Assembly: GCF_900002405.1 (NCBI RefSeq)
Contig: NZ_LK995474.1
Location: forward strand, 1-64,000
Length of the DNA: 64,000 nucleotides
DNA from: Actinomyces succiniciruminis
Lineage (GTDB): Bacteria; Actinomycetota; Actinomycetes; Actinomycetales; Actinomycetaceae
Direction: 5' to 3'
A program made the translations under genes and the position numbers. The notes under the pieces were generated by a model. It had not been told where the DNA came from. It did no database searches and was given only the letters and a program-made list of their open reading frames with translations. Positions 20,862-32,018 of this stretch are shown in pieces; position 1 is the stretch's first letter; each line of letters starts with the position of its first letter.

Positions 20862-22070
20862 TCACGACGCTTGTGGGCCGCCCTTCTCGGCCAGATGCGC
20901 CACCACGCCACCAATAAAGGTGTCGCCCAGCCCGATTGTCGTCGGAGAGGCGGTGCGCACCGCGAAGCCAGGAGCGATCATTACGCTCGCGGCGGCCACC
21001 TCCGGGGCGTCGGCCAAGCCCGCCCCGACCTCATCCCGAGGTGCCCGCGCCACCTCCGTGTACTCCTCAACGCCGTAGCGGTCCCCGTGTAGGAAGCGAG
21101 TGGATGCCAGTAGGCAACCCGCCTCAGCGGCCTCGCGGAACAGGGCCGCCCGCTCCCCCACCACAGCGGCGTAGCGGCTGGTATGCACCATGACAGTCGG
21201 CGCCCCGAGTCGCCGGTACAGGTCGGTCATCATCGCCGCTACCTGTGCCCCGTCCTCCAGATCTATGGCACGTCCGAGATAGTGACGCGCCTCATCCTCG
21301 TTGAGCGAGTGAAGATCCACCAGGTGCGGAATTGCCTCCAGGACCACCTCACGCATGGCGTCGTTGTGAAAACCCGCGTCCTCGTAGACGACGACGGCGT
21401 CTGGTGGCGTCTCGGCCAACGCGTCCTCGAGTTCGCCCAGTCGAGCGCGCAACTCGGATGCCGACTTCATGGTGTTGAAGCCCGAGATCAGGACTACCCG
21501 GGCCTCGGCGAGCAACCGAGGCAACTCCTTGCTCAGCCGCAGATCCTCGTTGGGCGCATCGTTGACCAGGATCACCCGATTGGGGCGGTGCGCGGTCAGC
21601 TCCCCATCGACCAGGCGCACCGCCGCGCCGGCCGGGTACTGGACAATCACGTGCGGATCCAAGGAGTCCGCCTCGGCGCTGCACACCCGCGCCACCGCAT
21701 CCGGCAGGAGCCGACGGACGTCGTCGTTAATGGAGACCAGGTGCACCGTCGAGGCTACGCCGATCCGTTCCATGGCCAGCGCCGCGCGAACGCACGTGCC
21801 GCCCAGGGTGACCTCGTAGGCGAAATGGTCAGCGAAGGCGATTAGCGCTCGTTTGTCTGCCGCGTAGCACTCGCAGCCCACCCCCTGCCACATGGAACGC
21901 AGCACCGTCAGCAGTATCTCCCGCTCGCCGAAGGCGCTGGCCGACGGAGGGTCCTCGAGCTCGGCTATTCGAATGTCGTGCCTGTCGACAAGCTCCTGGA
22001 ATGCATCCGCATCCCAGCCCAGCTCGTAGTCGACGGTCCCGCCGAGCCCGAGAACGATCCGCTCCGTCAT
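20862..22070 (-). CDS. ADP-dependent sugar kinase family protein (ADP-PFK/GK)
   Basis: A 402-residue protein of the ADP-dependent phosphofructokinase/glucokinase family (ribokinase fold). Seen: GLGGTVDYEL near the N-terminus, VTLGGTCVRAALAMERIG (sugar-binding region), VVLISGFNTMKS, SLNEDEA (the NxxE-like motif), and the C-terminal GLGDTFIGG with the catalytic base Asp383. The family is mainly archaeal; bacterial members are few. It would phosphorylate a ketose or ketose phosphate; ADP as donor is the family norm, untested here. It is the last gene of the ABC-aldolase operon, 49 bases after the aldolase; AAGGGGGA precedes the ATG. Confidence 0.8.
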   Translation of the reverse strand: MTERIVLGLGGTVDYELGWDADAFQELVDRHDIRIAELEDPPSASAFGEREILLTVLRSMWQGVGCECYAADKRALIAFADHFAYEVTLGGTCVRAALAMERIGVASTVHLVSINDDVRRLLPDAVARVCSAEADSLDPHVIVQYPAGAAVRLVDGELTAHRPNRVILVNDAPNEDLRLSKELPRLLAEARVVLISGFNTMKSASELRARLGELEDALAETPPDAVVVYEDAGFHNDAMREVVLEAIPHLVDLHSLNEDEARHYLGRAIDLEDGAQVAAMMTDLYRRLGAPTVMVHTSRYAAVVGERAALFREAAEAGCLLASTRFLHGDRYGVEEYTEVARAPRDEVGAGLADAPEVAAASVMIAPGFAVRTASPTTIGLGDTFIGGVVAHLAEKGGPQAS

Positions 22071-23868: not shown

Positions 23869-24807
23869 CTACTCCCTCACCTGTTGGCTACGCACGTAGA
23901 AGAAGGCAAGGATCATCGACAGGACCAGCACGATCACCGCACTGGCGGACGCCCCCGAGAAGTCGTACTCGGAGAACGCCAACTTATAGGTGAAAGTGGA
24001 CAGCACCTCCGTCCGGTCAAGCGGCCCTCCGCCGGTGGTCATCCAGATGAGCGCGAACTGCTGCGAGGTCCAGATGACGTCGAGCAGGGCCATGGAGATA
24101 ATGATCGGCCGCAGCTGTGGGAGGGTGATTGACCAGAACCTCCGGATCGGGCCGGCGCCGTCGACCTCCGCCGCCTCGTACAGATCCTTCGGGATGCCCT
24201 GAAGACCGGCAAGGATCGAGATCATGAAGAACGGGTACCCGGACCAAATGTTGATGAAGGTGACCGCGGCCAGGGCGATATCCGGATCGGCGAGCCACTC
24301 GTGCTGTCCGCTAACGACGCCCAGACCAGGCAGGATCGCGTTGACTACGCCGTTGGGATTGAGCAGCAGTCGCCACAGGATGGCGATGATCGCAACGGTC
24401 AGTAGCCACGGGAGTACGAACAGGGTGCGGAAGACGGTCCTGGTGACAGCGGATACCGACTCGGAATTGAGCAGCATGGCAAATCCGAGACCCAACAGCA
24501 TATGCGCCACCACGCTGATGGCCACGAACCAGAACGTGTTGGCCAGCGCCGTACGGAACTTGCTGCTGGTGAGGATCTCGACGTAATTGCCCAGCCCGAT
24601 GAAGTGGGACTCCCTAGCGGCGATGACAGCATCCATCAGCGAGTATCCGACCACCATGACGATCGGAATCACCATCAGCACCATCAACAGGATTAAGGTC
24701 GGTGACAGGTATGCGTAGGGCACAAGTGCCTGGGTCAGGCGCCGCCCACGGGACGGCGCCCTCACCCGCCGCCTCCGAGACGCATTTGCGGCATCGGCGA
24801 CACTCAT
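23869..24807 (-). CDS. sugar ABC permease, MalF-like (CUT1)
   Basis: A 312-residue permease with a basic N-terminus, six membrane segments and the EAA loop DLYEAAEVDGAGPIRRF. It forms the translocation pore with the MalG-like protein. It begins nine bases after the binding-protein stop, so the three importer genes are tightly linked. Confidence 0.93.
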   Translation of the reverse strand: MSVADAANASRRRRVRAPSRGRRLTQALVPYAYLSPTLILLMVLMVIPIVMVVGYSLMDAVIAARESHFIGLGNYVEILTSSKFRTALANTFWFVAISVVAHMLLGLGFAMLLNSESVSAVTRTVFRTLFVLPWLLTVAIIAILWRLLLNPNGVVNAILPGLGVVSGQHEWLADPDIALAAVTFINIWSGYPFFMISILAGLQGIPKDLYEAAEVDGAGPIRRFWSITLPQLRPIIISMALLDVIWTSQQFALIWMTTGGGPLDRTEVLSTFTYKLAFSEYDFSGASASAVIVLVLSMILAFFYVRSQQVRE

Positions 24808-24816
24808 GGGCCAACC

Positions 24817-26109
24817 TCAGAACTCCTCGTCCCACGCCTGCTGGGCGTTGGCGAGCATGGTGTCGACGTCGATATCGCCGCTGAGGTAGCTCTGGAACTG
24901 CTCATCGAACTTGCGCATGAGCGTCTCGGAAACCGGCAGACCGGTGAACTCATTGGCAGGCGTGCCCGAGCTCCAGATCTCGAAGGCCTGCTTGAACAGC
25001 TCATCATCCTCGACATAGTCGGGCGTGGCCGTACTGTTTCCGGGGAAGGCCTTAGCGTCGTCGGCGAGCACCGCATTGGTGTCGGCCGACATGAGGAACT
25101 CCACCAGCTTCCACGCCTCCGCCGGATGCTCGGTGGTACCGGAGACACCGATGCCCCAAGAGGCGTAGGGCATGCCGCGCTGGCCGGAGTAGCCACTCAC
25201 GGCGGGCAGTGCGGCAATGCCGAATTCCAGGTCCGGGTTGCCCTCGCGGATGGTATTCACGTGCGCGAGGGAGTCGATCATCATGCCGACCCGCGCATTG
25301 GTGAAGTCCTCGACCTTGTCCTGCTCCTTCATGGTGAAAGCGCCCGGCGAGATGACGCCGTCGTCCCACAGACTCTTGATGAACTCGCAGGCGCTCTTGA
25401 CGTCCGCGTTGCCCTGGAGGTTCGGCTTGCCGTCCTCGGTGAGCATCGATCCACCGGAGGCCCAGACCCAGGACATCACGTCATTCTGAATGCCGTTCGG
25501 CGCCTCCAGCGAGAGCGGCAGCGCCCAGCCGGAGACGTCCTCACCCGTGTCCGCAATGGCCGCGGCCGCGGACTCGAACTCCTCACGCGTGGAGGGGATT
25601 GCCGAGACGCCGGCCTGTTCAAGCAGATCCATATTGGTGAACATGGGGTAGACGAAGTTGACCACCGGGATCATGTAGGTGGCGCCGTCGATCTGAATCT
25701 GGCTGGCGAGCTCGGAGTCGTCGTAGCCCTGCTCGGCCATCAGGGCCGTCAGGTCCGCTATGGCACCCTGCTTCGCGAAGTCGCTCACCCATGCACCGTC
25801 CAAGCCGACCACATCCGGCATGGTCTGCGCCGCGGCACCGGCAACCAGCTGCTCCTTGGTCGAGGCATAGGGCCCGGAGAGCAGCTCGACCTTGATCCCG
25901 GGGTTGGCCTGCTCGAACTGGTCCATGAGGGCGCGCAGGGCCCCGTCCGGCAGTTCGGGTTCCCACCACTGGGTGAACTCCAAGGTCACCTCCCCATCGC
26001 CGCCTCCACTACTTCCCGATCCGCCACATCCGGCCAGACCCATCGCCGCCAGAGCGGCCACTACGGCCGTCATCTGCCCGAATTCGCGCCTACGCATACG
26101 CATCAGCAT
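24817..26109 (-). CDS. sugar ABC substrate-binding lipoprotein
   Basis: A 430-residue extracellular solute-binding protein (SBP_bac_1 group). The signal sequence ends in lipobox LAGC with lipidated Cys28, followed by a Gly/Ser linker. The mature part starts VTLEFTQWWEPE, a common opening in CUT1 binding proteins. GGAG lies six bases before the ATG. It is the first gene of the operon and thus closest to the promoter. The ligand cannot be read from the sequence, but it should be the aldose handled by the isomerase, kinase and aldolase. Confidence 0.93.
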   Translation of the reverse strand: MLMRMRRREFGQMTAVVAALAAMGLAGCGGSGSSGGGDGEVTLEFTQWWEPELPDGALRALMDQFEQANPGIKVELLSGPYASTKEQLVAGAAAQTMPDVVGLDGAWVSDFAKQGAIADLTALMAEQGYDDSELASQIQIDGATYMIPVVNFVYPMFTNMDLLEQAGVSAIPSTREEFESAAAAIADTGEDVSGWALPLSLEAPNGIQNDVMSWVWASGGSMLTEDGKPNLQGNADVKSACEFIKSLWDDGVISPGAFTMKEQDKVEDFTNARVGMMIDSLAHVNTIREGNPDLEFGIAALPAVSGYSGQRGMPYASWGIGVSGTTEHPAEAWKLVEFLMSADTNAVLADDAKAFPGNSTATPDYVEDDELFKQAFEIWSSGTPANEFTGLPVSETLMRKFDEQFQSYLSGDIDVDTMLANAQQAWDEEF

Positions 26110-26145
26110 TGTTACTCCATCATCATTGACACGAGTTGCGACATC

Positions 26146-26186
26146 ATGCTGGTTTCATCCACTTCCTGATGTCCATGAACGAGCAT
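26146..26186. promoter_or_regulatory. candidate DeoR operator in divergent promoter
   Basis: An imperfect inverted repeat, ATGCTGGTTTCAT against ATGAACGAGCAT (arms 26146-26158 and 26175-26186), in the gap between the divergently transcribed ABC operon and the DeoR gene. Placement suits an operator controlling both, but no consensus supports it. Confidence 0.35.
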
Positions 26187-26277
26187 AGTGCGACTTTTTG
26201 CGGTTGTCTGCGCTCGATTGGCAACAATCAAGTAACGTTCGGCTTGAAGACGCATGAAGAATGCCTAGACTGGCGCC

Positions 26278-27084
26278 ATGAACGACGCCGCACCCCGCCT
26301 CCCTGGAGGGCGGAAGGCCGAAATCGCCGGCTATGTGAACCGACTGGGTCAGGTGACGGTGACGGCCCTGGCGGACCACTTCGGCGTTTCGGCCGACACC
26401 ATCCGTAGAGATCTAGACCAGCTTGACGCCGACGGCCTGCTCATCCGTATGCACGGCGGAGCGATGTCCAACTCCGCCGTCCCCTGGCACGATACGAACC
26501 TGAGCGACCGCGCCCGTTTGCAGGCGTCCCAGAAGGATCGTATCGGCCGGATCGCCGCGGAGCTCGTGCAGGACGGCAACGTCCTGTTCATCAACGGGGG
26601 AACCACCGCACTGTCCCTGGTACACCACCTGTCGAACAAGCGGGAACTCATCATCGCGACCAACAACCTCGCACTGCCGGTGGAGATCAACCCGGAGGCG
26701 TGCCGCGACGTATACGTCATCGGCGGGCATGTGCGTCTGTCTGGCCGCGTAACCATCGGCCCGGTCGCCTTCGCCTCCGCCATCTCCGGAGTGGAGAACG
26801 ACATCCACGTCGACCTCGCCCTCATCGGTGTGGGCGCCGTCGACACCGACGGCTTCTCCACTTCCAACTTGGACGAGGCCGCCATGCTTGCGCAAATGGC
26901 CGCCCGCGCCCGTCGGGTAGCCATTCTTGCCGATTCGACCAAGCTTGGTCGGCGTCTGTTCGCCGCGATTGGCGACCTTGCGATTGCCGACTACCTGATC
27001 ACCAACGAACAGCCCAACACCGAGCTCAGCGCCGCCTTGAGCGCCCACTCGGTACAGGTGCTCACCCCGGATACGCCTTACTGA
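26278..27084 (+). CDS. DeoR-family sugar-responsive repressor
   Basis: A 268-residue regulator. The N-terminal winged helix (about 12-66) has the DeoR recognition pattern VTALADHFGVSADTIRRDL. The C-terminal sensor domain has FINGGTTAL (phosphosugar loop), ATNNLALP, VIGGHVR and the late KLGRRLFA segment near 222-229. Members bind sugar phosphates and usually repress the adjacent catabolic operon. It is divergent from the ABC operon and 46 bases upstream of the isomerase gene, so it likely controls both. The inducer may be the phosphorylated ketose. Confidence 0.9.
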   Translation: MNDAAPRLPGGRKAEIAGYVNRLGQVTVTALADHFGVSADTIRRDLDQLDADGLLIRMHGGAMSNSAVPWHDTNLSDRARLQASQKDRIGRIAAELVQDGNVLFINGGTTALSLVHHLSNKRELIIATNNLALPVEINPEACRDVYVIGGHVRLSGRVTIGPVAFASAISGVENDIHVDLALIGVGAVDTDGFSTSNLDEAAMLAQMAARARRVAILADSTKLGRRLFAAIGDLAIADYLITNEQPNTELSAALSAHSVQVLTPDTPY

Positions 27085-27130: not shown

Positions 27131-28366
27131 ATGACCACGCTCATGACCCGCCAATTCTTCGATTCCGAAGCCTGGAGCCTGCTCGCCTTCGGCAAGCGCT
27201 CCCGCACCGAGCATGGGTTCGGCTGGCTCGACGACGTCGGCAGCATCGACGCCACGCACGGCGTACAGCTATGGATCACCGGCCGCATGACCCACTGCTT
27301 CGCTCTCGGACAGCTCATGGGCGACCCGGACTGCGCCGCTCTGGCAGAACACGGCGTCGCCCGCCTACTGGACGGCCCGCTGCACGACACCGTCGCCGGA
27401 GCCTGGCTCTCCGCAGTTGATATCGACGGGACCCCGCGCCCAGGAAACCTGGTCTCCTACGAGCACAGCTTCGTCATCCTGGCTGCCGCCTCCGCACTCA
27501 TGGCCGGCGTATCACGCGCGCAGGCACTGCTCGATGCCGCCCTGCTCACCTTCGACCGACTGTGGTGGGACGAGGCCGTCGGGATGGTGGTGGATGCTCG
27601 GGACCGTCACAGCCTCGCCGTCGCCTCCTACCGTGGGGCGAACGCGAACATGCACACGGTTGAGGCACTGTTGGCGGCCTACTCCGCCACTCACGACACC
27701 ACTCACCTGCGGCGAGCGGCGCGCATCACCGACCGGATCGCGCGCGAGTTCGCTACCCATGACTTCCGCCTGCCCGAGCACTTCGACGTCGGCTGGAACG
27801 CCGTCCTCGACTACAACCGGGACCGCCCCGCCGACGCCTTCCGCCCCTACGGCTCCACAGTCGGGCACTGGCTGGAGTGGTCGCGGCTGATGATTCAGGT
27901 GCGCACCGCCTGCACCGCCGAAGGCATCGGCTTTGACCCGTTGCTGGACACCATCCCAGGGCGCATGTACCGGCAGGCACTGCAGGAGGGATGGGGCGTA
28001 GACGGCGAACGCGGTTTCGTCTACACGGTGGACTTCGCTGGACGCCCGGTGGTGCATGAACGCATGTACTGGGTGCTGTGCGAGGCGATCGGCGCGGCGG
28101 AGACGCTGCGTGAGACCACCGGGGATCCCTCCTACGACCACGACGTCGACGCCTACGCCGCCTGGGCCCGCGACTATTTGATCGAGGCACCCGGCCAGTG
28201 GCGCGAAGAGCTCGACGCCAATAACCGCCCGAGCTCAATCACCTGGTCGGGCAAGCCCGACATCTACCACGCACTCCAGGCAATGCTGATCGGCCGCCTG
28301 CCGATCACCCCATCATTCGCGGAAGGCCTGCTGGCCACTGGGGCATCGCCCGCCCGAAGCCGTTGA
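27131..28366 (+). CDS. YihS-type aldose-ketose isomerase (AGE family)
   Basis: A 411-residue (alpha/alpha)6-barrel isomerase of the N-acylglucosamine 2-epimerase family. Similarity to E. coli YihS (sulfoquinovose/mannose isomerase) is clear from memory: RGANANMH with His175, EHFDVGWN, GHWLEW with His246 and Glu249, FVYTVDFAG, and KPDIYH with His380, equivalent to YihS His176, His248, Glu251 and His383; Arg52 matches Arg55. Residues I recall as sulfonate contacts in YihS (Arg238, Gln362, Gln379) are Ala236, Glu359 and Pro376 here, so a non-sulfonated aldose such as mannose is more likely. AAGGAGG precedes the ATG. It shares the transcript with the DeoR gene. Confidence 0.85.
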   Translation: MTTLMTRQFFDSEAWSLLAFGKRSRTEHGFGWLDDVGSIDATHGVQLWITGRMTHCFALGQLMGDPDCAALAEHGVARLLDGPLHDTVAGAWLSAVDIDGTPRPGNLVSYEHSFVILAAASALMAGVSRAQALLDAALLTFDRLWWDEAVGMVVDARDRHSLAVASYRGANANMHTVEALLAAYSATHDTTHLRRAARITDRIAREFATHDFRLPEHFDVGWNAVLDYNRDRPADAFRPYGSTVGHWLEWSRLMIQVRTACTAEGIGFDPLLDTIPGRMYRQALQEGWGVDGERGFVYTVDFAGRPVVHERMYWVLCEAIGAAETLRETTGDPSYDHDVDAYAAWARDYLIEAPGQWREELDANNRPSSITWSGKPDIYHALQAMLIGRLPITPSFAEGLLATGASPARSR

Positions 28367-29466: not shown

Positions 29467-30930
29467 ATGTACGAAGGCAACGGTGCTGAGCGGCGATCCG
29501 GCGGGGCCTCCCCGACGGATCGGGCGGGGCTGCCCGGCTCCGTGAGGGGATCGACGGCGACCGTTGCCTGCGCCGCTTCATACGGGGAAGCAGCGGCCGG
29601 GCCCGGGGCCGAGCACGATTCCACGGCCGTGCCCGGAGTCGTGCGGGAGCCCACGGCGCTGATCGAGCACCTGGCGGAAGTACCCGCAGGCGCAGGTCTG
29701 GCGAGCCTGGTTGAGGGCCTGTTGGCCGGCATACTGGTACCCGCCAACCCCAACGGTGAGGCGGCCGGCTCCGCCGCCGGGAAGACCGCAGCAAACGCAA
29801 GCGCGGTGGCTGCTGCAAGCACCGCAAACGCCGCAAACGCCGCGGATGCTGTAAGCATCGCCGAGCTGGCAGAAATACTGGGGACTCCCGACACCGGCGC
29901 ACTGTTCAACACCATCACGAGCCCGGCCGACCGCGCCCTGGCGCAGACCTCCGCACAGCAGGGCGTGGACTGGGGCGAGGGCACCGGCATCGACCGCCTG
30001 GCCGCGCTGGGCGGGCAAGTGCTCAGCGAACTGGTGGCGGCGTGCCACCGGCTGGTCTCCTGGGCGTCGTGGTGCGAAAGCGCGGCGGCCGCCTGCCTTG
30101 CACGCACACCGGAGATGAACCGCGGCGCAGCTCCCTGGGGTCCGGACGGGCGACTCGAATGCCTGGTGACGGAGGAGGAGCGACGTTTCACCACCGGCGG
30201 GGAGATCGCCTGCCGACTCGGCACCACCCGCCAGAGCGCCTGTCAGATATTGGATCGGGGCGAGGCTCTGCTACAACCCGAGTTCGCGGCCACCGAGACC
30301 CTGCACCGGGGCGGCCTGCTGGATGCGAGCAAAACCGCCCTGATTGTTCGGCGCCTGGAGGGTGCCGACGCGAGGGTGGCCAGGGCCGTACAGGAGCAGG
30401 TCCTGCCTCGCGCACCCCGCAGGACGACGTCGCAGCTGGCCAAGGACATCGACCGCGCCCTGGCCGCTTTAGACCCCGACGGCGCCGGCAGCCGCCGTAA
30501 GCGCAACCTGGCGCGCAGGCACGTTACGCGGCCCCGCCAGGCGGGCGAGGGCGTTCATGAAATGCGGCTCCTGCTGCCGAGCCTGGACGCGTTCCTACTG
30601 GATGCGACTCTGGACGCCATCGCCGCCTCCGCCCGGGCTGCCGGGGATGAGCGTTCCCCGGCGCAGCTACGGGCCGACGCCATCACCGGCATGACGCTGC
30701 GCACCCTGCAAGCCAGCCAGTACGCCGCCTGTCGGCCGTCTTTCACCGCACCTGCAAACGTCGACGACGCCGCCCCAGCAACTGTACCGACCAGCGTCGA
30801 CGCCGGTGCCCCGCCGCCTGCACCGGCCAGCGGACAGCTGCTGCCCGACGGGGTCCCGCTGGAGGGTTTGTTGGCCGGGTTGAGCAGCCTGGTTGCCCCT
30901 CCCTCCCCTGGTGGACACCCTCCGGGGTAG
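29467..30930 (+). CDS. DUF222 half of a frameshifted DUF222-HNH protein
   Basis: A 487-codon frame covering the N-terminal part of an actinobacterial DUF222-HNH protein. An Ala-rich region (about 95-130) leads to the DUF222 helical domain (about 200-420), seen in CRLGTTRQSACQILDRGEALL and VHEMRLLLPSLDAF. It stops early at a TAG in a C-rich stretch near 30890-30930. The expected continuation (GITINVDVTVPLEHLLPDG) is in another frame immediately downstream. Either a real frameshift has inactivated the gene or the stretch holds a sequencing error. Such genes are numerous in Actinomyces; their role, possibly mobile-intron-like, is unclear. Confidence 0.7.
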   Translation: MYEGNGAERRSGGASPTDRAGLPGSVRGSTATVACAASYGEAAAGPGAEHDSTAVPGVVREPTALIEHLAEVPAGAGLASLVEGLLAGILVPANPNGEAAGSAAGKTAANASAVAAASTANAANAADAVSIAELAEILGTPDTGALFNTITSPADRALAQTSAQQGVDWGEGTGIDRLAALGGQVLSELVAACHRLVSWASWCESAAAACLARTPEMNRGAAPWGPDGRLECLVTEEERRFTTGGEIACRLGTTRQSACQILDRGEALLQPEFAATETLHRGGLLDASKTALIVRRLEGADARVARAVQEQVLPRAPRRTTSQLAKDIDRALAALDPDGAGSRRKRNLARRHVTRPRQAGEGVHEMRLLLPSLDAFLLDATLDAIAASARAAGDERSPAQLRADAITGMTLRTLQASQYAACRPSFTAPANVDDAAPATVPTSVDAGAPPPAPASGQLLPDGVPLEGLLAGLSSLVAPPSPGGHPPG

Positions 30931-30983: not shown

Positions 30984-32018
30984 TTGGAGCACCTGCTCCC
31001 CGACGGCGCCGGCGCCATGGAGGATGGCCCGCCAACCGGGTACGGCCCTCCCACCGCCGGCGATACGCCAGGGCGGCCCACGGGCGCCGTCGTCGGGCGA
31101 TCCTTCGCATCCGACGGGCGAAGTGTGCCCGAAACGTCCCCGGCCGACGGAAGCAGTGTGCCCGCCGCGGGTCGCTCAGACTCACCTGCGTGCGGCGATA
31201 GCAGTGTGCCAACCGCAGGCCCCCCAAACCCACCTACGCACGACGGGAGCAGTGCGCCCGCCGCGGTTGTGGGCGGTCACCGTCTCCCCTACGCCGGGAC
31301 GGCCGCGGGCGCGGGTCCTGCGGCCGAGGTGACCATAGGGGTCAGCACGGTGCCGGTGCCCGCCGCCACCGCCCGCGCCCTCGCAGCCGGTGGGGTCTGG
31401 CGCAGGCTGATCACCGACCCGGTCTCGGGGACGGTACTAGACGTGGGTCGCACCCACTACCGGCCCCCGGTCGCCCTGCGCGAACTCGTGCAGGCAAGGG
31501 ACGGCTCCTGCACGTTCCCGGGCTGCACCATCCCCGCCGCCCGTTGCGACACGGACCACATTCAACCCTGGGCCGAGGGCGGGGCGACCAGCCTGAGTAA
31601 TCTCACCAGCCTGTGCCAGGCCCACCACCGGCTCAAGCACACGCCCGGGTGGAGCCTCAGCCGCACCGACTCCGGTGATCTGACCTGGTGTACTCCCACC
31701 GGCGCTCGCTACCGGCGCAGCCTGGACGGGAGCATCACCCTTCTGGCCCACAGGATCGGGCCTCGCCAACTGCTTGTCCCCGCCCAAAAGATCCCCGCGC
31801 GCCTCACCGAGGCCGTCGACGACGCCGTCCTGAGTCGTCTCCAACACGGCCTCGACCTCAGTGCACGAGACGCCACTCGTGCCGGCGAGCGCCCGCGGAT
31901 CACCAGCCGCGGTCCCCGCCCCGGCCAGCCCGTAGGCGCTTTCGAGACCACTGCCTACTCGGATGCCCTGCACGACCTCGGTCTGGCCCCACTGCTAGAC
32001 GAGATTCCGCCCTTCTGA
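30984..32018 (+). CDS. HNH half of the frameshifted DUF222-HNH protein
   Basis: The C-terminal continuation of the preceding frame, 344 codons from a TTG; the true reading extends upstream through ITINVDVTV in this frame. After a low-complexity region it has the complete HNH nuclease module: CTFPGC, CDTDHIQPWAEGG, NLTSLCQAHHRLKH, with the two Cys pairs and the catalytic His. The nuclease domain is intact, but without the upstream frame it has no convincing start or ribosome site. Treat both pieces as one broken gene of about 850 codons. Confidence 0.7.
   Translation: MEHLLPDGAGAMEDGPPTGYGPPTAGDTPGRPTGAVVGRSFASDGRSVPETSPADGSSVPAAGRSDSPACGDSSVPTAGPPNPPTHDGSSAPAAVVGGHRLPYAGTAAGAGPAAEVTIGVSTVPVPAATARALAAGGVWRRLITDPVSGTVLDVGRTHYRPPVALRELVQARDGSCTFPGCTIPAARCDTDHIQPWAEGGATSLSNLTSLCQAHHRLKHTPGWSLSRTDSGDLTWCTPTGARYRRSLDGSITLLAHRIGPRQLLVPAQKIPARLTEAVDDAVLSRLQHGLDLSARDATRAGERPRITSRGPRPGQPVGAFETTAYSDALHDLGLAPLLDEIPPF

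What the first reader, a model, noticed from the sequence alone, without database searches (positions are those of the whole stretch)
27131..28366. YihS-like isomerase that keeps catalysis but appears to lack the sulfonate-binding residues
By memory alignment to E. coli YihS, catalytic His176, His248, Glu251, His383 and Arg55 are conserved, while Arg238, Gln362 and Gln379 correspond to Ala236, Glu359 and Pro376. That argues for a substrate without a sulfonate, perhaps charged or bulkier at C6 given the Glu.
Basis: partly seen in the sequence, partly recalled or inferred. Interest (0 to 1): 0.6.

Follow-up and report, generated by a model that had tools for sequence, protein, structure and literature searches.

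The report
Neutral-sugar isomerase in hidden glycolysis operon
This Actinomyces gene makes a relative of a known sugar-swapping enzyme that is not built for sulfur-bearing sugars; it sits in a conserved set of genes that looks like an undescribed way of importing and splitting an ordinary, uncharged sugar, probably mannose or a close relative.

Summary
In detail: the 411-aa protein is an AGE-family, YihS-like isomerase. R55/H176/H248/E251/H383 are kept (R52/H175/H246/E249/H380), and R238/Q362/Q379 are A236/E359/P376. Calibration changes its meaning. Actinobacterial YihS orthologs beside YihT and YihV keep R315 and Q362, but have R or Q at 238 and P or A at 379. So Q379 is not diagnostic, R238 only weakly; Q362 and the unmentioned R315 are. 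The protein lacks both (E359, Y313). All sampled non-sulfo relatives lack them too, so nothing shows a loss here. "Charged at C6" fails: E359 is Gly in an ortholog with the same operon. The gene lies with DeoR, divergent from SBP-permease-permease-class II aldolase-kinase. That module recurs in 20 other actinobacterial loci, where a ManA-like protein often fills the isomerase slot. The aldolase has lost the DPR arginine, the ADP-dependent-family kinase has glucokinase-type residues, and the ManA-like proteins lack the phosphate arginine. Best reading: a neutral, sulfo-EMP-like route: aldose → ketose → ketose-1-phosphate → DHAP + aldehyde. The substrate (D-mannose, D-lyxose, D-rhamnose?) is inferred, not shown.

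The parts
27131..28366 (+). ISOM: AGE-family, YihS/D-mannose-isomerase-like aldose-ketose isomerase, 411 aa
   Evidence: PF07221 and NCBIfam ManIsomPseudo (365 bits, cut-off 600); PDB and fold match to YihS; site table
26278..27084 (+). DEOR: DeoR-family sugar-responsive regulator, 46 bases upstream of ISOM, same strand
   Evidence: PF08220 + PF00455; conserved next to ISOM in Actinomyces and beside the divergent operon in 20 other loci
26110..26277 (.). Divergent intergenic region with conserved TGCGAC-type repeats, likely the DeoR operator region
   Evidence: Alignment of 8 loci and repeat search; operator role is inference
24817..26109 (-). SBP: extracellular sugar-binding lipoprotein of an ABC importer
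   Evidence: PF01547; PDB relatives are maltose/acarbose/sulfoquinovosyl-glycerol binding proteins, all distant
23869..24807 (-). PERM1: ABC importer permease
   Evidence: PF00528
23013..23864 (-). PERM2: ABC importer permease
   Evidence: PF00528
22120..22980 (-). ALDO: class II ketose-phosphate aldolase, 286 aa from the internal Met (ORF listed to 23127); DPR motif replaced by REPN
   Evidence: PF01116 E 4e-84, NF006042 371 bits; alignments
20862..22070 (-). KIN: sugar kinase of the ADP-dependent glucokinase/phosphofructokinase family, 402 aa from the internal Met (ORF listed to 22175)
   Evidence: PF04587; fold Z 19.2 to 1u2x; profile match to ADP-glucokinase 1ua4 E 1.6e-17; invariant GLGD and NEDE motifs

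Best explanation
ISOM is the aldose-ketose isomerase of a dedicated catabolic operon for a neutral sugar with D-manno-type configuration (D-mannose, D-lyxose or D-rhamnose are the leading candidates). Proposed steps: the ABC importer brings in the sugar (inferred from gene content); ISOM opens the aldose and isomerises it to the ketose with its conserved three-histidine/Glu centre (residues shown, reaction inferred); KIN, an ADP-dependent-family kinase, phosphorylates the unphosphorylated ketose, most likely at C1 (inferred); ALDO cleaves the ketose-1-phosphate into DHAP and an uncharged aldehyde (inferred); DEOR controls both divergent units (inferred). It works like sulfo-EMP (YihS-YihV-YihT) without the sulfonate, and with a non-orthologous kinase and aldolase. 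Confidence by part: not a sulfoquinovose isomerase about 0.95; functional link to the operon about 0.9; neutral substrate about 0.7; ketose-1-phosphate route about 0.5; D-mannose itself about 0.35.
For: Shown: intact catalytic residues and YihS fold. R315 and Q362, kept in E. coli/Salmonella YihS and in three actinobacterial YihS that sit with YihV and YihT, are Y313/E359 here. DEOR-ISOM beside SBP-PERM1-PERM2-ALDO-KIN is kept in eight Actinomyces genomes plus Actinomyces sp. B33. The five-gene unit with divergent DEOR recurs in 20 other actinobacterial loci; directly after KIN lies a ManA-like protein in 10 and an AGE isomerase in one, L082, which scores 425 bits to the D-mannose isomerase model. 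Two unrelated folds with mannose-fructose type chemistry in one slot point to the reaction. ALDO has REPN where fructose- and tagatose-bisphosphate aldolases have DPR, in every KIN-linked ALDO; the Arg of DPR is known to bind the C6 phosphate (own knowledge, FbaA R331). KIN keeps D14, E67 and H140 (glucokinase/bifunctional type) and has D138 and D171 where phosphofructokinases have the F6P-binding Lys and Arg. The ManA-like proteins keep the metal-ligand motifs but lack the R...K phosphate motif.
Against: No activity data. The aldolase retains Lys in SSDIK, like KbaY, and has an invariant Arg three residues upstream of the lost one, which could still bind a phosphate. Glucokinases phosphorylate C6, so KIN could make a 6-phosphate. 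Nine of the 20 non-Actinomyces loci have no isomerase directly beside KIN. One Actinomyces genome (L039) and one B33 copy (L035) carry an intact isomerase without the operon. No gene for using the C3 aldehyde (or glycolaldehyde) is in the operon. E359/Y313 vary within the clade (S/G, S/E), so specificity may not be uniform.
Confidence: 0.5

Rival explanations
1. Ordinary mannose catabolism: ISOM is a D-mannose isomerase that makes fructose, KIN makes fructose-6-phosphate or fructose-1,6-bisphosphate, and ALDO is a fructose-bisphosphate aldolase.
For: Best NCBIfam hit of ISOM is D-mannose isomerase, a solved D-mannose isomerase is among its nearest folds (5x32, Z 43.9), KIN belongs to the ADP-GK/PFK family, and no enzyme for an odd aldehyde is present.
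Against: ALDO lacks the DPR arginine in all KIN-linked copies, KIN lacks the F6P-binding Lys and Arg, and ISOM is below the equivalog cut-off (365 of 600 bits).
Confidence: 0.27
2. ISOM is a sulfoquinovose isomerase with a rearranged sulfonate pocket in a sulfo-EMP variant.
For: Same fold and same pathway logic (isomerase, kinase, aldolase, ABC importer); two of the three named residues vary in genuine actinobacterial sulfo-EMP YihS.
Against: R315 and Q362 missing; no YihT homolog in the genome, and only distant matches to YihQ (29%) and YihU (31%), away from the window; no sulfolactaldehyde gene in the operon; kinase and aldolase not of the YihV/YihT type.
Confidence: 0.03
3. The substrate is charged at C6 (for example a uronate, amino sugar or phosphate), read from Glu359.
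For: E359 with Y313 is fixed in most of the clade, so the C6 end does differ from the H/H background.
Against: E359 is Gly in L039 and L040; L040 has the complete operon. Kinase, aldolase and ManA-like replacement all lack anion-gripping residues.
Confidence: 0.07
4. ISOM is a disaccharide 2-epimerase (cellobiose 2-epimerase type) and the importer brings in oligosaccharides.
For: Same superfamily; the binding protein is of the oligosaccharide-binding type.
Against: YihS-type three-histidine centre; fold closer to YihS and mannose isomerase (Z 51, 44) than to cellobiose epimerases (Z 40); cellobiose epimerase NCBIfam model only 17 bits; no glycosidase in the operon.
Confidence: 0.05

Closest known systems
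YihS sulfoquinovose isomerase (E. coli, Salmonella; PDB 7ag4, 2rgk)
   Same: Fold, three-histidine/Glu/Arg catalytic set, 35-36% identity, operon logic isomerase-kinase-aldolase
   Different: Lacks R315, Q362, R238, Q379; no YihV/YihT-type partners
AGE-family D-mannose isomerases (Marinomonas 5x32, Pseudomonas geniculata enzyme PMC7762179)
   Same: Same family and catalytic set; likely related chemistry on neutral sugars
   Different: Only 23% identity to 5x32 in the structural alignment; below the NCBIfam cut-off; Y313/E359 pair instead of the H/H seen in most actinobacterial relatives; sits in an operon with kinase and aldolase
[quoted passage not shown]
   Same: Aldose to ketose to ketose-1-phosphate to DHAP plus aldehyde (proposed here)
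   Different: No sulfonate-specific residues, different kinase family (ADP-GK/PFK instead of PfkB or PfkA), class II aldolase with REPN, no aldehyde reductase or dehydrogenase in the operon
E. coli ydj cluster (YdjH kinase, YdjI aldolase)
   Same: Sugar kinase and class II aldolase for a 1-phosphate without a C6 phosphate, with a regulator gene alongside; YdjI also lacks DPR
   Different: No isomerase, PfkB-type kinase (own knowledge), different transporter; annotated for long uronate sugars

Membership tests
AGE superfamily, YihS-type isomerases | PF07221 domain and (alpha/alpha)6 barrel | tested here: met
   PF07221 E 9.6e-89; fold match Z 51.1 to 7ag4
AGE superfamily, YihS-type isomerases | Catalytic His176, His248, Glu251, His383 and Arg55 | tested here: met
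   H175, H246, E249, H380, R52
YihS sulfoquinovose isomerase | Residues kept in all sulfo-EMP YihS examined here (R315, Q362) | tested here: not met
   Y313 and E359
   A236, P376; but these vary in genuine sulfo-EMP YihS, so not diagnostic
YihS sulfoquinovose isomerase | Genes for sulfofructose kinase and sulfofructose-phosphate aldolase nearby | tested here: not met
   Partners are ADP-GK-family kinase and class II aldolase of another type; no YihT homolog found in the genome
YihS sulfoquinovose isomerase | Sulfoquinovose-sulfofructose isomerisation | not testable with these tools
   Needs enzyme assay
D-mannose isomerase (NCBIfam NF051846) | Score above the curated cut-off of 600 bits | tested here: not met
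   365 bits
D-mannose isomerase (functional class EC 5.3.1.7) | Mannose-fructose isomerisation | not testable with these tools
   Needs enzyme assay
ADP-dependent sugar kinases (KIN) | Family fold and sequence profile | tested here: met
   Z 19.2 to 1u2x, 353 residues; profile E 1.6e-17 to 1ua4
ADP-dependent sugar kinases (KIN) | GXGD catalytic motif and N/DXXE motif | tested here: met
   G380-D383 invariant, N257 in 18 of 19 and E260 in all
ADP-dependent phosphofructokinase | F6P-binding Lys179/Asn181/Arg212 (PMC7948494) | tested here: not met
   D138, H140, D171 at the aligned positions
ADP-dependent sugar kinases (KIN) | ADP rather than ATP as donor | not testable with these tools
   Needs enzyme assay
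Fructose/tagatose-1,6-bisphosphate aldolase, class II (ALDO) | DPR arginine that binds the C6 phosphate | tested here: not met
   REPN in all KIN-linked copies

The most novel reading that the evidence does not exclude
The operon encodes an undescribed actinobacterial glycolysis for a neutral sugar: isomerase (AGE or, elsewhere, ManA-like), an ADP-dependent-family ketose-1-kinase, and a class II ketose-1-phosphate aldolase, i.e. a sulfonate-free counterpart of sulfo-EMP assembled from different enzyme families, possibly for a 6-deoxy sugar such as D-rhamnose or D-quinovose.
Probability: 0.4. Interest if true: 0.7.

Novelty: new variant of a known kind. Interest (0 to 1): 0.47.

Why it matters
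It gives a calibrated rule for telling sulfoquinovose isomerases from neutral-sugar isomerases: look at positions 315 and 362, not 379. It also points to a conserved but apparently uncharacterised actinobacterial sugar pathway with a bacterial member of the ADP-dependent kinase family, whose substrate can be found with four purified proteins and a binding assay.

Tried and rejected
Sulfo-EMP in this genome: no YihT homolog, only distant YihQ (29%) and YihU (31%) matches elsewhere (the empty YihT search has no positive control inside this genome). Phosphorylated-sugar reading (isomerase acting after a 6-kinase): disfavoured by KIN and ALDO residues. A search for a disrupted isomerase: the 'TGA inside' flags in L004/L005 (= L039/L040) are only slightly earlier natural stops. 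Promoter and terminator scans: nothing. Core Actinomyces paralog neighbourhoods: no conserved operon. Single-sequence KIN search of 396 phylum genomes found only the own genome; the profile search of the class found nine of 297. Literature searches for mannose, lyxose or 6-deoxy ketose-1-phosphate routes with these genes found no description, but only open-licence papers were searched. The primary YihS-sulfofructose paper and the class II SF1P aldolase paper were not held, so direct sulfonate contacts could not be read from a source.

Full report
OBSERVATION. The ORF at 27131-28366 (+) is intact, 411 aa. It belongs to PF07221. Its closest solved relatives are the YihS structures, and the AlphaFold2 model superposes best on the YihS-sulfofructose complex 7ag4 (Z 51.1, rmsd 2.4 over 398 residues, 36% identity), ahead of the D-mannose isomerase 5x32 (Z 43.9). 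The residue correspondences given from memory are all correct. The genome is an Actinomyces: the nearest named relative is A. glycerinitolerans, 94%.

IS ABSENCE OF THE TRIAD MEANINGFUL? I first looked at relatives. In two Actinomyces clades, other actinobacterial families, plasmid-borne AGE proteins and 3gt5, the R238/R315/Q362/Q379 combination is found only in YihS. The usual state is P or Q at 238, H at 315, H at 362, P or A at 379. The same genome has a second, 45% identical isomerase (G000:C18), a homolog of which is found in nearly all Actinomyces genomes searched, with the P/H/H/P state. So the residues are not shown to have been lost in this protein; lacking them is the background.

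POSITIVE CONTROL. I then searched 396 genomes of the order with E. coli YihS. Four of the top 30 loci (57-64% identity) stand apart. Three of them (L165-L167) sit with YihV (32-34%) and YihT (48-51%) homologs and ABC permeases, i.e. the actinobacterial sulfo-EMP layout reported for Arthrobacter (PMC8873060). Their states at 238/315/362/379 are RRQP, QRQA, QRQA. The other 26 loci have no R315/Q362. Hence Q379 is not needed, R238 can be Q, and R315 plus Q362 track sulfoglycolysis; further positions such as A241 and H386 do so too. ISOM has Y313 and E359, P239 and Q383. That R315 or Q362 touch the sulfonate is not shown here.

E359. Within the eleven-member Actinomyces clade (100/100 support) the pair at 315/362 is mostly Y/E but S/E in L041 and S/G in L039 and L040. 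L040 has the complete operon. A charged C6 substituent therefore does not follow from the Glu.

OPERON. DEOR lies 46 bases upstream of ISOM on the same strand. Divergently run SBP, PERM1, PERM2, ALDO and KIN. Nine of 37 Actinomyces genomes have this isomerase; eight of them have the whole set, as does Actinomyces sp. B33. One genome (L039) keeps an intact isomerase but has lost or never had the rest. Searching with the aldolase's family model and with a KIN profile found DEOR-SBP-PERM1-PERM2-ALDO-KIN in 20 further actinobacterial loci. Directly after KIN, 10 have a ManA-like protein, one (L082) an AGE isomerase scoring 425 bits to the D-mannose isomerase model, and nine have no isomerase next to KIN.

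WHAT THE PARTNERS SAY. (a) ALDO: bisphosphate aldolases carry DPR near the C-terminus, whose Arg binds the C6 phosphate (E. coli FbaA R331, own knowledge); every KIN-linked ALDO has REPN, as far as L082, whereas the second aldolase of L093 and the only one of L101 have DPR. YdjI, annotated as a ketose-1-phosphate aldolase, lacks the motif too. A caveat is an invariant Arg three residues upstream and a retained Lys in SSDIK. (b) KIN: sequence profile and fold put it in the ADP-dependent GK/PFK family. According to PMC7948494, K179, N181 and R212 mark enzymes that use F6P, E90 marks glucokinases and bifunctional enzymes, and N181 is His in a specific glucokinase. KIN has D138, H140, D171 and E67 at these places; H140, D171 and E67 are invariant in 19 sequences. 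So its sugar is probably not phosphorylated. (c) ManA-like: the metal-ligand motifs (HxHP, K-T/A-E, HA) are kept, but R and K of the RAGLTPK motif are gone, again pointing to an unphosphorylated substrate.

MECHANISM. Taken together: uptake, isomerisation, phosphorylation of a free ketose, aldol cleavage without a C6 phosphate. C1 phosphorylation is the reading that makes kinase and aldolase fit; it is inferred. The aldehyde product would be glyceraldehyde, lactaldehyde or glycolaldehyde for mannose, rhamnose or lyxose respectively; no gene in the operon tells which.

RIVALS AND LIMITS. The main rival is plain mannose catabolism with a bisphosphate aldolase. It would leave the conserved REPN and the glucokinase-type kinase residues unexplained. 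The KIN model is only moderately confident (pLDDT 71.7), and the ISOM model is poor at 222-240. Genomes in the whole-genome search are unnamed, so the hosts of the operon outside Actinomyces are known only by kinship. The literature search covered open-licence papers only.

VERDICT. Observation confirmed; interpretation right on 'not sulfonate', wrong on the diagnostic weight of the residues and on the charged C6. The protein itself is a new member of a known kind; the operon context makes it a new variant worth testing.

Noticed in passing
window 29467-30930 and 30984-32018 (+): A DUF222 ORF followed by an HNH ORF looks like one gene split in two; the relative in L039 (12001-14568) reads as a single 855-aa ORF.
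   Followed up: partly
G000:C18:23096-24313 (L051): Second AGE isomerase, homologs in nearly all Actinomyces genomes searched, with a conserved C-terminal RRRG(F/L)FGR-like tail and no conserved operon.
   Followed up: partly
L041 8477-15920 (G012): The operon of this Actinomyces shows frameshifts in several genes and His-to-Tyr at catalytic position 176; decay or a poor assembly (82% complete).
   Followed up: no
L039 9424-10656 (G030): Isomerase ORF intact although regulator, importer, aldolase and kinase are absent from the locus.
   Followed up: partly
L093 5621-10890 and L101 8692-11609: Variant clusters with a second (L093) or only (L101) KIN2-type kinase, an SDR and an aldolase that keeps DPR, suggesting a sister pathway with a different substrate.
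   Followed up: no
L098-L100: Variant clusters with an FGGY-family kinase and two class II aldolases in place of KIN.
   Followed up: no
L165, L166, L167: Actinobacterial sulfo-EMP clusters (YihS, YihV, YihT, ABC permeases) whose YihS has Pro or Ala at 379 and Arg or Gln at 238.
   Followed up: yes
L050 4784-5912 (G012): A third, distant AGE homolog (PWPP state at 238/315/362/379) in one Actinomyces genome.
   Followed up: no
window 26110-26277: Conserved TGCGAC-type direct repeats in the divergent intergenic region, candidate DeoR operators.
   Followed up: partly
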